This document shows, piece by piece, positions 6,328-9,998 of a DNA stretch of 64,000 bases. Within the stretch, counting starts at the first letter, position 1, and each line of letters opens with the position of its first letter. Made by a program: the position numbers and the translations under genes. The notes beneath the pieces are model-generated. The model made no database searches and was not told where the DNA came from. It saw only the letters and a program-made list of their open reading frames with translations. The stretch is from Bacillus sp. Bos-x628 (lineage in GTDB: Bacteria > Bacillota > Bacilli > Bacillales > Bacillaceae), in assembly GCF_040500475.1 (NCBI RefSeq), contig NZ_CP159358.1:3100001-3164000 (forward strand), in the 5' to 3' direction.

Positions 6328-6627
6328 TCATTCTGATTGTACTTTTTTCCGTATTTCTCCTGTTACATTGTTTAACCATTGGAGTGGGGATATACCCAGA
6401 GCAGGAAAATAAATTCCATCTGCGCAAGATTGAATATAATCGTTTTTTTCAGCATCAGTATAGTCACTGTTTATAAATTCTGTAAGAAAATCAATTGCGT
6501 CTTTCAGATATTCACTGCTTTCTTCTTCTAATAAGTCTTGTAAAGCTTCCTCAGGTGAATCAATATCCTGATGAAAAGAACCTGCTAAAAATTGGAAAAT
6601 TGGATTATCTGGATTAATATTACTCAA
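6328..6627 (-). CDS. CdiI-type immunity protein paired with the RNase A-like toxin cassette
   Basis: A 99-residue acidic protein without signal peptide. Its pattern (PIFQFLAGSFHQD ... SPEEALQDLL ... DAIDFLTEFI ... ALGISPLQWLNNV) resembles the contact-dependent-inhibition immunity family CdiI_2, which neutralises RNase A-like CdiA-CT toxins by binding them in the cytoplasm. It starts at TTG 6627, with GAGG about ten bases upstream, and lies 17 bases after the toxin fragment on the same strand, the classic toxin-immunity order. Family assignment is from memory of the pattern and fits the neighbour. It may still protect against incoming toxin though the local toxin is truncated. Confidence 0.75.
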   Translation of the reverse strand: MSNINPDNPIFQFLAGSFHQDIDSPEEALQDLLEEESSEYLKDAIDFLTEFINSDYTDAEKNDYIQSCADGIYFPALGISPLQWLNNVTGEIRKKVQSE

Positions 6628-6644
6628 CGTATTATAACCTCACT

Positions 6645-7592
6645 TTATTTAGTTGGATAGCCTGTAAGAATGAACTTTCCGTCTTTCTTTTTCTTTAAAA
6701 TTATCAAAGCATTGGTCATATCTTGAACTTTTTCAGAGTCTCTTCTTACTCCACGTCCGATCATTTCATTTCCTTTATATGGTAATGCAAGTGTTGACTT
6801 GCTTTTAGGATTGTCCAACCAGTCTTTAATCAGTTTTTGATTAATTGAATTGGTTAAGACTTTATGAGCAACTTTCTCAGCAGTAGCCCTATCTTTAAAA
6901 GTTGATGAACCAGTAATTCTGAGGTCTTTCTTCAAACGTTGAAATAGCTCCTCATCTGTTTTACCAACATGCTTTTTGATTAAATGTCCGCCTTTTTTTC
7001 CTTTTTTCGCTTCATGAGCTGCCAAGCCACCTCCTGGAGCTAACGGACTGCTGTCTCCAGGTTTAATAAGATCTTGATCCTTTGTACCTTTCTCAACCTT
7101 TGAAACTTTCTTGGCTACTTTCTCCCCTTTCATTATTTTAAACACGTATTTTCCAGCTTTAACGATTTGAGCTCCTGGTATCATGTACAAGCTTGATACG
7201 AGGCGGTCTGTGTCAGTGACTTTATTACCTGTTACAGGATCTCTTCCTGTAATGATTCGAATTGCGTCGTTTATTCCTGTAAATTCAACCGCTATATTTA
7301 ATACGTTTTGGGGTTGATCGCCTGTTTTTACATCAGAAATCGGTTTAACGCTCTCAATCGTTACTTTGTTTTGCTCCGATATTCGTAACCGATACAGCAT
7401 TCCGTCTCGCATAACTTCAACTGTTTTGGCATTTGCGAAGTCGATATGTTTGTACTCACTTGTATCATACACTTTCCCATTGATGATCACTACGTTTTGA
7501 TTGATTTTAGTAGGTGGGTTTTCCTTTATGGCGGATGGGGCATTGATCGCGTCAAGAAGCATCAAGATTGGAATGGGAAATATTGTCCACAC
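6645..7592 (-). CDS. Orphan C-terminal toxin cassette: pre-toxin (PT-TG) plus RNase A-like domain, lacking the LXG head
   Basis: The open frame is 315 residues, but recognisable sequence starts only near residue 19 (about 7538). Upstream codons are antisense to the amidase remnant. Residues about 95-160 form a pre-toxin TG segment (TGRDPVTGNKVTDTDR ... GKYVFK) shared with the LXG gene at 8352. Residues about 190-315 resemble the CdiA-CT RNase A-like toxin domain: GGHLIKKHVGKTDEEL with His203 and His208, STFKDRATAEKV, GRGVRR, and a final ILTGYPTK with Thr310 and Tyr312. Those residue types match the active site described for the Yersinia CdiA-CT RNase. The LXG secretion head is absent, so it is probably a silent donor cassette, not an active effector. 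Confidence 0.8.
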   Translation of the reverse strand: MWTIFPIPILMLLDAINAPSAIKENPPTKINQNVVIINGKVYDTSEYKHIDFANAKTVEVMRDGMLYRLRISEQNKVTIESVKPISDVKTGDQPQNVLNIAVEFTGINDAIRIITGRDPVTGNKVTDTDRLVSSLYMIPGAQIVKAGKYVFKIMKGEKVAKKVSKVEKGTKDQDLIKPGDSSPLAPGGGLAAHEAKKGKKGGHLIKKHVGKTDEELFQRLKKDLRITGSSTFKDRATAEKVAHKVLTNSINQKLIKDWLDNPKSKSTLALPYKGNEMIGRGVRRDSEKVQDMTNALIILKKKKDGKFILTGYPTK

Positions 7593-7979
7593 CGTATTCT
7601 ATCAGAGGGTAGATGGAATTCGTTTAAAGATTCCATCGAAAAAGAACTGAAAGCATTGAATGGTGAAAAATCTTCGGCATCAAAACCCGTGAAAACAGCA
7701 CCTTCAACAAAACCTAAAACAAACACGTCTAAAAAGGCGTACAACTTACCGTCAGGCATTTTAAAAATAACGAAAGGGGCAGGAGTAAAAGCCTTACAAG
7801 AAGCCCTAGCAGATCTTTTCTGCTACCCTGACAAATGGGCAAAAAATAACGACATTGACGGCTATTATGGACCGAAAACAGCGGATGCGGTCAAGCGATT
7901 CCAATTGATGTATGGTCTTGTGGCTGATGGAGTTTATGGACCGAAGACTAAAGTGAAACTTGAAGCTCTCTTGAAGTGA
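7530..7979 (+). pseudogene. 5'-truncated phage-type N-acetylmuramoyl-L-alanine amidase
   Basis: The recognisable frame begins at GGWGIDRVKKHQDWNGKYCPHRI, the final part of an Amidase_2 catalytic domain, where the zinc-ligand His (KYCPHRI) lies. A Lys/Ser/Thr/Pro linker and a peptidoglycan-binding region with two YGPKT subrepeats follow, ending in EALLK. The N-terminal catalytic half is missing because the sequence runs into the truncated toxin on the other strand near 7530. Upstream in-frame codons and an ATG at 7446 are antisense toxin sequence. It resembles XlyA/CwlA amidases of Bacillus prophages. A bound wall-binding fragment is possible but no start signal is seen. Confidence 0.82.
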
Positions 7980-8020: not shown

Positions 8021-8079
8021 TTAGCTTTTAGAGCAACTATATGAGCACCATCTTTTGAATAATCTCTTATTTTCTCACT

Positions 8080-8346
8080 TTAATACAAATTAATCCATTC
8101 TATTTCTTCATGTTCATAGTATTCTTCTGCAAATTTTATGGCTTCCTCAATAGTATAATGAAGCGTGTCTCCTAACACGTTAAACTGTTCATCACAAGCA
8201 AACAAATAATACTCTTCTTTCTGATCATAATTACAAATAGCTAAAACATTAATCGATTTAGTCTCGCCATCTTCAAATTCAACAAAACCCAAATCTTTGT
8301 TTTTTGTATATTTAATTACCTTAGCACCATCAATCTCTTTTTTCAA
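8080..8346 (-). CDS. Putative immunity protein for the LXG toxin
   Basis: An 88-residue acidic protein (MKKEIDGAKVIKYTKNKDLG ... EYYEHEEIEWINLY) with no signal peptide or membrane segment. It starts five bases after the LXG toxin stop. The start is TTG 8346, with purine-rich ribosome-site sequence inside the end of the toxin gene, suggesting translational coupling. Position, size and acidity fit a cognate cytoplasmic immunity protein that neutralises the basic C-terminal toxin domain. No named immunity family is recognised. Confidence 0.65.
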   Translation of the reverse strand: MKKEIDGAKVIKYTKNKDLGFVEFEDGETKSINVLAICNYDQKEEYYLFACDEQFNVLGDTLHYTIEEAIKFAEEYYEHEEIEWINLY

Positions 8347-8351
8347 CTTCC

Positions 8352-9998
8352 TTACCTCTTCCTTTTAGTGTTATTTACTTTAACAGATTGGTCTGGCCTA
8401 ATAAAGTTGCCATTCTTGTCCCATTGCTCTAAGTGATAATGAAAATTATTTGGATTTCTCATTTCATGATCTCCAATTCTTACTGCACGTACTGTTCCAT
8501 CTGATTGCTTTACAAAGATTCTGTCTATATCCTTTTTACCAGTAAACGGGTTTATATCAGTTTGTTTACCTTTACCTAAAAAGTTTTCAATATCGCCATA
8601 AGCATCAATATCTTTTACATTTCTAGGTACGTGTTTTTTTCCCGTACCCTTACCCGTCTTCTCAACCCTCTTCACCACATTCTTCCCTTGATCAATCTTA
8701 AAAACATATTTCCCGCCTTTGATAATTTTCATAACTGGGATGATAGAGACTGCGGATAGGGCTTGGTCTGTGCCGCTTATTTTTTTGCTGGTTTCGGGGT
8801 CTTTGCCGGTGACGGCTCGGCAGCCGTCGTAGATGCTGCTGTATTCTAGGATGATGTTTTCGGCGGCTGAGATGACTTCGCCGTCTAAGATGCGTTTGGC
8901 GTTTCCATGGCTTCGGCTTTCTGGGATGTTGTCGACTTCTTCGATTTTTACTTCGCCGTTTACGATATACGTTCGGATGATTTGTTTATTGGCGTAAACG
9001 GTATACCGCCCGCCAATGTAATCAATGTCTGATGGGTCTGTGACCACTTCATCTGCGATATCGAATTCTTTGAGCTTTTTGATGCCTTTTACATTGTATA
9101 GTTTACCATTTACCACCCTGATGTCTCCATGAATCCGGTTTTTTCCGATCACGGCTTCTTTTTGCAATGGGGTAAGCGATGGGTCGTTTGCTTTTCCTTC
9201 TCTTTTGATGTTTTGGCGGGTCTCATTGCGAACAACCGCATCCACATTCGCTTGCTCTTTTTCATTCAGCTTCCTCAGCATAATCATCATTGGGGTTTCG
9301 TCAGGATTGTCTATTTTTTCATTCAATCCACTGATCGTACTGCTCACTTTTTCTTCTTTTCCATCTTTGAAAATAGAGCCTTTTTGATAGCTGGTGATCT
9401 CAATTTTCGGACCAGTGAACATGGTGCTTAGGGTGTCTATGTATTGCTTCATTGTGTGAAGGGCGCTTTCTGTTTCATGTAAAGCACTCGTTTGTTCCCT
9501 GTCAAATGCATGAAGCAGTCCAATGGTTTTTGAGGTTTCAAGCCATGCTTTTTGATAGCTTTCTTGGAAAGCAGATTCATCTACATGTGGCAAATGCACA
9601 ATATGGCTGACCTTGCCGAGGGCTTGATTTACATCTGATACGATATCAGAAACGGTCCGTTCTGCTTTTTTTAACCCTTGGTCAAGCTCGTGTTCAATAA
9701 ATGATTGAGAGATAAAGCCATTCGGGTTTGATTCAAATGCATGGAGAGCCTGCTTTGTCTTTTTTAGCGCACCGCTGTATTCTTCAATGACAACCTGAAA
9801 AAATTGCAAAAAAGGAATATGGCATTCTTCATAAAACGCTCGAATGGCTTCTCCAGCCTCGCCCTTTAGTGCGCCATCTAGTGAGATGATTTGATTGATT
9901 TGTATTTCAAGGGATTTGATGCTTTGTGATTGTTGTGTTAATTGTTCCAGCGTTTGATCAATGGCATTGTGCAACGCCTGAACATCTAAAGTTTTCAT
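8352..9998 (-). CDS. LXG-domain polymorphic toxin (YeeF-like), predicted type VII secretion substrate
   Basis: A 548-residue toxin. Residues 1-230 form a helical LXG head (SLDGALKGEAGEAIRAFYEE around residue 44), which in Firmicutes directs export through the Ess/Yuk type VII system. The middle contains a VVNGKLYNVKG segment. A pre-toxin TG motif (TGKDPETSKKISGTDQ, GKYVFK) precedes a basic C-terminal domain of about 90 residues (DINPFTGKKDIDRIF ... GDHEM ... NFHYHLEQW). The histidine-rich end suggests a nuclease and resembles polymorphic toxin type 24, but this is uncertain. ATG 9998 is chosen over farther starts because AAGGAGAATGCC precedes it and the LXG fold starts there. No LXG accessory genes lie upstream. 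Confidence 0.85.
   Translation of the reverse strand: MKTLDVQALHNAIDQTLEQLTQQSQSIKSLEIQINQIISLDGALKGEAGEAIRAFYEECHIPFLQFFQVVIEEYSGALKKTKQALHAFESNPNGFISQSFIEHELDQGLKKAERTVSDIVSDVNQALGKVSHIVHLPHVDESAFQESYQKAWLETSKTIGLLHAFDREQTSALHETESALHTMKQYIDTLSTMFTGPKIEITSYQKGSIFKDGKEEKVSSTISGLNEKIDNPDETPMMIMLRKLNEKEQANVDAVVRNETRQNIKREGKANDPSLTPLQKEAVIGKNRIHGDIRVVNGKLYNVKGIKKLKEFDIADEVVTDPSDIDYIGGRYTVYANKQIIRTYIVNGEVKIEEVDNIPESRSHGNAKRILDGEVISAAENIILEYSSIYDGCRAVTGKDPETSKKISGTDQALSAVSIIPVMKIIKGGKYVFKIDQGKNVVKRVEKTGKGTGKKHVPRNVKDIDAYGDIENFLGKGKQTDINPFTGKKDIDRIFVKQSDGTVRAVRIGDHEMRNPNNFHYHLEQWDKNGNFIRPDQSVKVNNTKRKR

What the first reader, a model, noticed from the sequence alone, without database searches (positions are those of the whole stretch)
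6328..9998. LXG toxin locus with a downstream orphan RNase A-like toxin/immunity cassette
The intact LXG toxin (8352-9998) and its neighbour immunity gene are followed on the same strand by a headless second toxin (6645 to about 7538) with its own immunity gene (6328-6627). Both toxins share the VNGK(L/V)Y segment and the pre-toxin TG region (TGxDPxT ... GKYVFK) but differ completely after it. That shared stretch could allow recombination to replace one toxin tip by the other, turning an exported nuclease of unknown class into an RNase A-like effector. An RNase A-like CdiA-CT domain behind a Gram-positive LXG context is itself of interest.
Basis: partly seen in the sequence, partly recalled or inferred. 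Interest (0 to 1): 0.78.

Follow-up and report, generated by a model that had tools for sequence, protein, structure and literature searches.

The report
Displaced toxin cassette with phage scars
A Bacillus antibacterial toxin gene seems to have had its killing end replaced, the old RNase A-like killing end and its antidote gene still lie behind it, and leftover phage lysis-gene ends hint at how such ends are swapped.

Summary
8352-9998(-) is an intact LXG toxin; 6645-7529(-) is a headless pre-toxin plus RNase A-like tip (RNAse_A_bac 95 bits, four catalytic residues kept) with a CdiI_2 immunity gene. The proposed local tip swap is not supported: the two pre-toxins share only 9 exact bases in a row. 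The orphan's partners are elsewhere in the genome: three other LXG genes carry its pre-toxin at about 98% DNA identity, one a full LXG-RNase A-CdiI_2 set. In all three, window 9234 is followed directly by 7529, so the locus reads as a cassette (7530-9233) inserted at the head/pre-toxin boundary, displacing the older one. Both cassettes here end in a convergent 3' piece of a prophage endolysin. This recurs: among listed matches in 44 Bacillus genomes, 33 of 33 LXG-endolysin pairs within 6 kb are convergent-downstream (0.4 expected), and loci with 93-96% identical heads and 84-95% identical endolysin ends can carry unrelated tips and immunity genes. Displacement also occurs at another site (lipL) in relatives. 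Orphan LXG modules and LXG-RNase A fusions are known; the endolysin-bounded exchange and the uncharacterised tip B, also found in an Rhs-like protein, look new.

The parts
9234..9998 (-). LXG head (called type I here), residues 1-255 of the intact toxin
   Evidence: Pfam LXG 213 bits; 92-96% aa identical to four other heads of the genome
8643..9233 (-). pre-toxin B (PT-B, contains PT-TG) of the intact toxin
   Evidence: PT-TG 41 bits; 90% aa identical to the LXG at the lipL locus L039
8352..8642 (-). tip B, uncharacterised toxin domain (boundary with PT-B approximate)
   Evidence: 2 relatives beside itself, one of them Rhs-like by sequence (P0003); model pLDDT 68 without PDB match; no PDB sequence match up to E 1
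8080..8346 (-). putative immunity gene of tip B (TTG start)
   Evidence: 18 related proteins of 84-89 aa; no known family; model pLDDT 90 without PDB match at E <= 0.001
7985..8014 (+). terminator-like hairpin between immunity gene B and the endolysin fragment; flagged on the + strand only
7530..7979 (+). 3' part of a prophage endolysin, convergent to the toxin genes, cut at about 7530
   Evidence: PG_binding_1 58 bits; PHROG endolysin 147 bits; aligns to the whole amidase of L066 from about its residue 123 on
7529..7530 (.). junction between displaced cassette and endolysin piece
   Evidence: window 9234 and 7529 adjoin with no gap in L036, L037, L038
7077..7529 (-). pre-toxin A (PT-A) of the headless orphan
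   Evidence: PT-TG 62 bits; 94-97% aa identical to L036, L037, L038
6645..7076 (-). RNase A-like tip of the orphan
   Evidence: RNAse_A_bac 95 bits; PDB 5e3e E 3.1e-16; H36, R47, T138, Y140 of the tip align with the four catalytic residues
6328..6627 (-). CdiI_2-type immunity gene of the orphan (TTG start)
   Evidence: CdiI_2 43.8 bits; PHROG 16822 117 bits
6125..6262 (+). decayed endolysin 3' remnant behind the orphan cassette
   Evidence: own-genome match at 3106125-3106262, E 2.7e-6
5775..10436 (.). island between the collagen-like gene and rpsD
   Evidence: none of its modules matched in the stretches of 16 of 16 relatives; G003 joins window 5774 and 10437 within about 122 bp

Best explanation
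The locus is a two-layer polymorphic-toxin site. The older layer was an LXG head with pre-toxin A, an RNase A-like tip and CdiI_2 immunity, ending against a convergent prophage endolysin gene. A second cassette (pre-toxin B, tip B, immunity B and the 3' part of another endolysin) was inserted exactly at the head/pre-toxin boundary, most likely by homologous recombination in the shared head on one side and an illegitimate join inside the endolysin on the other. The new tip is now on the LXG protein; the old tip and immunity gene were pushed downstream as a headless reserve. The constant flanks that allow exchange are the LXG head (and pre-toxin) upstream and, in prophage-borne relatives, the endolysin 3' end downstream, so phages are probable carriers. 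The orphan toxin is probably not exported; its immunity gene may still protect against RNase A-tipped LXG toxins, and its pre-toxin is similar enough to those of other LXG genes of the genome for exchange. Shown: anatomy, boundaries, absence of the island in relatives, paralogues, the endolysin linkage among listed matches, co-segregation of tip and immunity. Inferred: order of events, mechanism of the joins, phage carriage, silence of the orphan, function of its immunity gene.
For: Window 9234 abuts 7529 with zero gap in 3 of 3 own-genome loci with this head and PT-A. Heads 92-96% aa, PT-A 94-97% aa; against L036, DNA identity is 98.0% over PT-A and 72.7% over the tip. Island modules absent at the rpsD site in 16 of 16 relatives. 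Displacement at the lipL site: PT-A cassettes in front of truncated PT-B orphans in G003 and G050, and a second headless PT-B module behind a PT-B toxin in G008. 33 of 33 LXG-endolysin pairs within 6 kb convergent and downstream (the tool listed 150 of 345 LXG and 150 of 324 endolysin matches). 20 loci from those pairs: each has one same-strand ORF (96-156 aa) between LXG and the endolysin match, a holin match beside it in 9 of 20. Tip and immunity families split these 20 loci into the same 7 groups, and 26 of 94 same-head pairs keep head and endolysin end at 75% or more with unrelated tip and immunity, for example L109 with Ntox50 against L110 with Tox-HNH-EHHH. Second set: 28 of 42 LXG genes in viral contigs have the convergent endolysin downstream.
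Against: This head type was not found in viral contigs or in 50,697 phage records, so phage carriage of this very head is indirect (6 of the 8 type-I loci among the 20 have a holin match beside the endolysin). Two of the five own-genome loci with this head, L038 and L039, have no endolysin piece in the fetched stretch. 14 of 42 viral-contig LXG genes have no endolysin match in the fetched stretch. The right-hand join shows no clear homology. At lipL no endolysin piece was found, so it is not needed for displacement. Genomes and contigs are related and may overlap, so counts are not independent events. Only one strain shows the rpsD island, and the order of events is read from one locus.
Confidence: 0.7

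Rival explanations
1. Two complete LXG loci once lay in tandem and the second lost its head by deletion; no cassette insertion took place.
For: The genome has five copies of this head; G008 shows a second module with only a piece of head. Would also give two endolysin remnants.
Against: No trace of a second head in the window; the endolysin piece is joined to the first base of PT-A at the exact boundary of the paralogues. In G003 and G050 the displaced orphan has instead lost the start of its pre-toxin.
Confidence: 0.2
2. The two genes of the window recombine with each other through the shared pre-toxin stretch and swap tips locally.
For: Both encode NGK(L/V)Y, TGxDPxT and GKYVFK; precedent in Salmonella Rhs, where main and orphan share 522 bp at 95% (PMC3967940, passages).
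Against: Longest exact DNA match 9 bp, best local alignment 62 columns.
Confidence: 0.04
3. The orphan is kept for its immunity gene alone: CdiI_2 protects against RNase A-tipped LXG toxins of kin, and the tip is carried along.
For: An RNase A-tipped LXG with a 47% identical CdiI_2 exists in the same genome; at lipL, G059 has an immunity gene like that of G003 without the toxin; lone immunity genes are known in Listeria (PMC10327511, passages).
Against: The tip frame is open with four catalytic residues intact, which a recent event would also explain. No promoter evidence: 9 promoter-like sites in 5700-10520, 13.1 expected by chance.
Confidence: 0.3
4. The endolysin pieces are only relics of decayed prophages that carried LXG as a late gene; they play no part in tip exchange.
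For: The pieces in this window are truncated or decayed; L038 and L039 have none; lipL displacements show none.
Against: Heads of 93-96% and endolysin ends of 84-95% DNA identity flank unrelated tip and immunity genes in six pairs, which suggests exchange between the two flanks.
Confidence: 0.35

Closest known systems
Orphan LXG toxin/immunity modules of Enterococcus faecalis OG1RF (OG1RF_11111, 11113, 11123; PMC7790226, passages)
   Same: Headless fragments downstream of a full LXG gene, each next to a possible immunity gene, with full-length LXG forms in other strains
   Different: There the 5' ends of two orphans share >75% DNA with part of the neighbouring LXG gene; here the orphan shares no useful DNA with its neighbour, matches other loci of the genome, and is separated by an endolysin piece
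Rhs main/orphan pairs (Salmonella LT2, PMC3967940, passages)
   Same: Displaced tip with own immunity gene, downstream of the main toxin gene
   Different: Rhs, not LXG; main and orphan share 522 bp at 95%, so local fusion is possible there and not here
CdiA-CT/CdiI of Yersinia kristensenii, PDB 5E3E (PMC9086364, passages)
   Same: Same Pfam tip family; the same four catalytic residues
   Different: Gram-negative CDI carrier; here an LXG-type pre-toxin. The orphan's CdiI_2 has no significant PDB sequence match
Tip cassette model of polymorphic toxins (PMC3482391, passages)
   Same: Toxin and immunity moved as one cassette to a constant 5' gene body, old immunity genes left behind
   Different: No constant 3' partner is named in the passages seen; here a convergent prophage endolysin is a candidate for it
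Bacillus subtilis LXG toxins on prophages and prophage-like elements (yobL, yokI, yqcG; PMC8321402, passages)
   Same: LXG genes on prophages, diverse tips with antitoxins that match them group by group
   Different: No endolysin neighbour or displaced tip in the passages seen ('amidase' occurs 0 times in that text)

Membership tests
LXG polymorphic toxin (8352-9998) | N-terminal LXG domain | tested here: met
   PF04740, 213 bits against cut-off 26.5
LXG polymorphic toxin (8352-9998) | variable C-terminal tip on a shared head, small gene directly downstream | tested here: met
   Five 92-96% identical heads with different downstream parts in one genome; ORF 8080-8346 has 18 related proteins. 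That it gives immunity is not shown
LXG polymorphic toxin (8352-9998) | type VIIb machinery in the genome | tested here: met
   One YukC match, 375 bits; other components not searched
LXG polymorphic toxin (8352-9998) | adjacent small Lap partner genes (common, not defining) | tested here: not met
   No Lap-like match in the window; among the window and 14 own-genome stretches, convincing matches only at L039
LXG polymorphic toxin (8352-9998) | export and killing of neighbours | not testable with these tools
   needs bench work
Bacterial RNase A-like toxin (RNAse_A_bac) | profile match above curated cut-off | tested here: met
   95 bits against 27
Bacterial RNase A-like toxin (RNAse_A_bac) | catalytic H175, R186, T276, Y278 of the Yersinia toxin | tested here: met
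   Tip H36, R47, T138, Y140 align with them; the numbering of the PDB chain was set by me from spacing
Bacterial RNase A-like toxin (RNAse_A_bac) | RNase activity neutralised by the neighbour immunity protein | not testable with these tools
   The neighbour meets the CdiI_2 profile, 43.8 bits
Orphan toxin/immunity module | no delivery domain, behind a full toxin on the same strand, own immunity gene, full-length form elsewhere | tested here: met
Orphan toxin/immunity module | DNA homology with the main gene that would allow fusion (can be present, not defining) | tested here: not met
   9 bp longest exact match with the neighbour; 131-165 bp with three other loci
Known fold for tip B | structural match to a known toxin fold | tested here: inconclusive

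The most novel reading that the evidence does not exclude
In Bacillus, temperate-phage lysis regions act as cassette-exchange sites for type VII toxins: the LXG head on one side and the convergent endolysin 3' end on the other are the constant arms, and exchange moves tip and immunity together. One-armed exchanges leave displaced cassettes with endolysin scars, such as this one. The inserted tip B would be a new toxin family shared between LXG, Rhs and a third carrier.
Probability: 0.48. Interest if true: 0.68.

Novelty: new variant of a known kind. Interest (0 to 1): 0.52.

Why it matters
How Gram-positive bacteria reshuffle the killing ends of their type VII toxins is little studied in the papers seen here. 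This locus keeps both layers of one replacement with exact breakpoints. The comparison that it prompted points to a simple, testable rule: toxin tip and immunity gene often sit between an LXG head and a phage endolysin end. If right, it links phage traffic to toxin diversity and gives a handle for finding unknown toxins, such as tip B, as whatever lies between the two arms.

Tried and rejected
Local recombination between the two window genes: rejected on DNA identity (the global alignment printed in that call was uninformative and is not used). RNase A behind LXG as a novelty: rejected, 14 of 83 proteins carry both domains by my count of the table (one of the 83 is the window's own). Comparison at the rpsD site: 16 of 16 relatives lack the island, 5 of them (G003, G008, G048, G049, G059) with the collagen-like gene joined to rpsD, so there is no swapped-tip series at this site; the lipL site was used instead. 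Tip B and immunity B in PDB: no Foldseek match at E <= 0.001 for either, no strong VIA match for tip B, no sequence match for tip B; no known fold is excluded by this. A 75 bp repeat near 6036-6110 as the end of a mobile element: 4 places in the genome, itself included, no conclusion. Tip B and this head in viral contigs: none confirmed. Orphan protein and head in phage records: none. Plasmids: 13 records match the head, all under 60%, not pursued. Endolysin and LXG in print: searches listed no paper that, from its title, the start of its abstract or the passages opened, describes the convergent endolysin; passages of eight papers were read, other listed papers were not opened.

Limits of the counts: one search uses the 150 best LXG and 150 best endolysin matches that the tool listed, of 345 and 324 (my sums of its per-genome counts). 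The 20 loci hold 21 of the 33 pairs and were chosen for having the pair, so their arrangement is no separate test. The 42 viral-contig loci are a second set, but may come from some of the same genomes. Terminator hairpin as a stop for toxin-strand transcription: not supported, it is flagged on the + strand only.
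Full report
WHAT IS THERE. On the minus strand, read from 9998 down, lie an intact LXG toxin (548 aa), a small gene 8080-8346, a headless pre-toxin with RNase A-like tip, and CdiI_2. On the plus strand lie a 149-residue 3' piece of a phage endolysin between the cassettes (7530-7979) and a decayed shorter one behind the second (6125-6262). The alignment of the first with the intact prophage amidase in L066 starts at about residue 123 of that amidase, within a few bases of 7530. 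That is where the orphan's toxin homology stops (7529).

THE ORPHAN TIP. RNAse_A_bac 95 bits; the one PDB sequence that matches at E <= 0.001 is 5e3e, the Yersinia kristensenii toxin, E 3.1e-16. PMC9086364 (passages) names its active residues H175, R186, T276, Y278; the aligned residues in the tip are H36, R47, T138, Y140. The frame is open and no delivery domain precedes it. Promoter-like sites in 5700-10520 are no more than chance gives (9 found, 13.1 expected). So the orphan toxin is probably not made in quantity; this is inference.

ITS KIN IN THE SAME GENOME. The genome has 15 LXG matches. Five share one head type at 92-96% aa with the window's: the window, L036, L037, L038, L039. L036 (1668116) is a whole LXG-PT-A-RNase A gene with CdiI_2 behind it; it and the orphan are the only 2 RNAse_A_bac places in the genome. 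L037 carries Tox-HNH-EHHH with Imm50; the tips of L038 and L039 have no Pfam match at E <= 0.01. In L036, L037 and L038, head and PT-A are contiguous so that window 9234 is followed directly by window 7529: taking 7530-9233 as an insertion explains the window without a gap. Against L036 the orphan is 98.0% identical over the 453 bp of PT-A and 72.7% over the tip, so the pre-toxins share a recent history and the tips do not. The neighbour's PT-B is 90% aa identical to that of L039. Longest exact matches: orphan PT-A with the neighbour's PT-B 9 bp; with L036, L037, L038 165, 141, 131 bp. The five heads form one group, apart from the other species' heads in a tree of 19 rows, with moderate support (88/79), so they multiplied or were homogenised within this lineage.

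THE SITE. At rpsD, none of the island's modules matched in 16 of 16 relatives. In 5 of the 16 (G003, G008, G048, G049, G059) the collagen-like gene lies next to rpsD; in G003 window 5774 and 10437 lie about 122 bp apart. The G059 stretch is short (2,405 bp, contig end) but also shows the join. The 4.66 kb block is thus an island known from this genome only.

THE SAME EVENT ELSEWHERE. The lipL site of 17 genomes: head with PT-B in 10 (one, G051, with a broken head), head with PT-A in 3 (G003 with its head split over two frames, G050, G016), a headless PT-B module in G059, no LXG in 2 (G057, G021), contig end in 1 (G017). In G003 and G050 the PT-A cassette stands in front of a headless PT-B module whose alignment starts at PT-B residue 107 and 95; G008 has a second PT-B module with a scrap of head. 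G059 has kept an immunity gene like that of G003 with no toxin. So PT-B appears displaced by PT-A there, and PT-A by PT-B in the window. Over the 17 genomes, 8 of 68 PT-TG matches have no LXG match within 1 kb upstream; 5 of the 8 lie 1.5-2.8 kb behind an LXG on the same strand, 3 (G043:C6, G041:C17 at a contig start, G059 at lipL) have none within 6 kb. One of the 5 (G000:683989, 25.8 bits) is weak.

THE ENDOLYSIN ARM. In the own genome 7 places match the endolysin piece; 4 of them lie directly behind tip-immunity pairs: two in the window, one each at L036 and L037. L038 and L039 have none. Genus-wide, of the listed 150 LXG and 150 endolysin matches in 44 genomes (345 and 324 in all), 33 pairs lie within 6 kb and all 33 are convergent with the endolysin downstream; about 0.39 such pairs are expected from uniform placement. 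I fetched 20 loci that hold 21 of the 33 pairs: each has one same-strand ORF of at least 60 aa (96-156 aa) between LXG and the endolysin match, and 9 of 20 have a holin match, so these look like prophage lysis regions. Tip families and immunity families give the same 7 groups. Among 94 pairs with the same head type, 26 have head and endolysin-end DNA identity of at least 75% with unrelated tip and immunity: for example L107/L110 93 and 95%, L117/L126 96 and 91%, L120/L123 96 and 84%. L109 carries Ntox50 and L110 Tox-HNH-EHHH. L110 (type I head) and L114 (type II head) share a tip family. In viral contigs, 28 of 42 LXG genes with type II head have a convergent endolysin downstream, 24 of 42 within 1.5 kb of the LXG stop; one of the 28 has a further piece upstream; 14 of 42 have none, 8 of these in contigs over 120 kb. 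Related contigs are not independent. The type I head itself was not found in viral contigs or phage records.

TIP B. Two relatives beside itself: P0002 (73%, no Pfam domain at E <= 0.01) and P0003 (64%; only a weak chance-like Pfam match), whose sequence looks like an Rhs core (recalled motif). Conserved in all three: among others H17, D42, R54, R68, H72, E73, H81, H83, E85 of the aligned piece. No fold or sequence match in PDB. It is a toxin by position and by change of carrier; its class is unknown. The proteins related to its presumed immunity protein give a confident model (pLDDT 90) without PDB match.

PARTNERS. LXG export needs partner proteins (PMC9600955, title and abstract start in the listing). 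Among the window and 14 own-genome LXG stretches, DUF5344- and DUF5082-like genes stand only at the lipL LXG, L039 (the DUF5082 name is recalled). The window gene, if exported, may borrow them, its head being 92% identical; this is inference.

PRINT. LXG orphans: PMC7790226 (passages). Cassette model: PMC3482391 (passages). Rhs orphan fusion: PMC3967940 (passages). LXG genes on B. subtilis prophages: PMC8321402 (passages). Searches showed no report of the endolysin arm; most subscription papers are not held.

VERDICT. Real, and a clear instance of cassette displacement. The orphan itself is a known kind; the endolysin-bounded cassette is, as far as these searches go, a new variant worth a proper survey.

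Noticed in passing
window 3785-5749 (+): Long collagen-like gene next to the island; similar repeats at L041 1540-2509.
   Followed up: no
window 2932-3472 (+): Isochorismatase-like gene (name recalled) over two overlapping frames (2932-3111 and 3092-3472), possibly frameshifted; its second part matches in 15 of the 16 relatives' stretches.
   Followed up: no
L087 (G000:C1 near 3223783): Endolysin tail between an integrase-like start and a short gene pair that resembles (recalled, not tested) a T7 lipase-type toxin and its immunity gene, near a contig end.
   Followed up: no
L060 575-1175: Two different CdiI_2-like genes in tandem behind one RNase A tip in B. tequilensis, next to an endolysin.
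   Followed up: no
L067, L062, L066: Prophage-like stretches with several toxin-immunity units and repeated endolysin ends, like arrays of the same exchange.
   Followed up: partly
G000:C1:683989-684108 (L041 3990-4109): Second, weak headless PT-TG scrap in the same genome, 2.8 kb behind the LXG at 686933.
   Followed up: partly
window 6036-6110: 75 bp repeat, 92% identical to a stretch about 180 bp upstream of the LXG gene in L036; 4 places in the genome, itself included.
   Followed up: partly
G059 lipL locus (L104 5234-5560): Immunity gene kept with no LXG toxin, in front of a headless PT-B module.
   Followed up: partly
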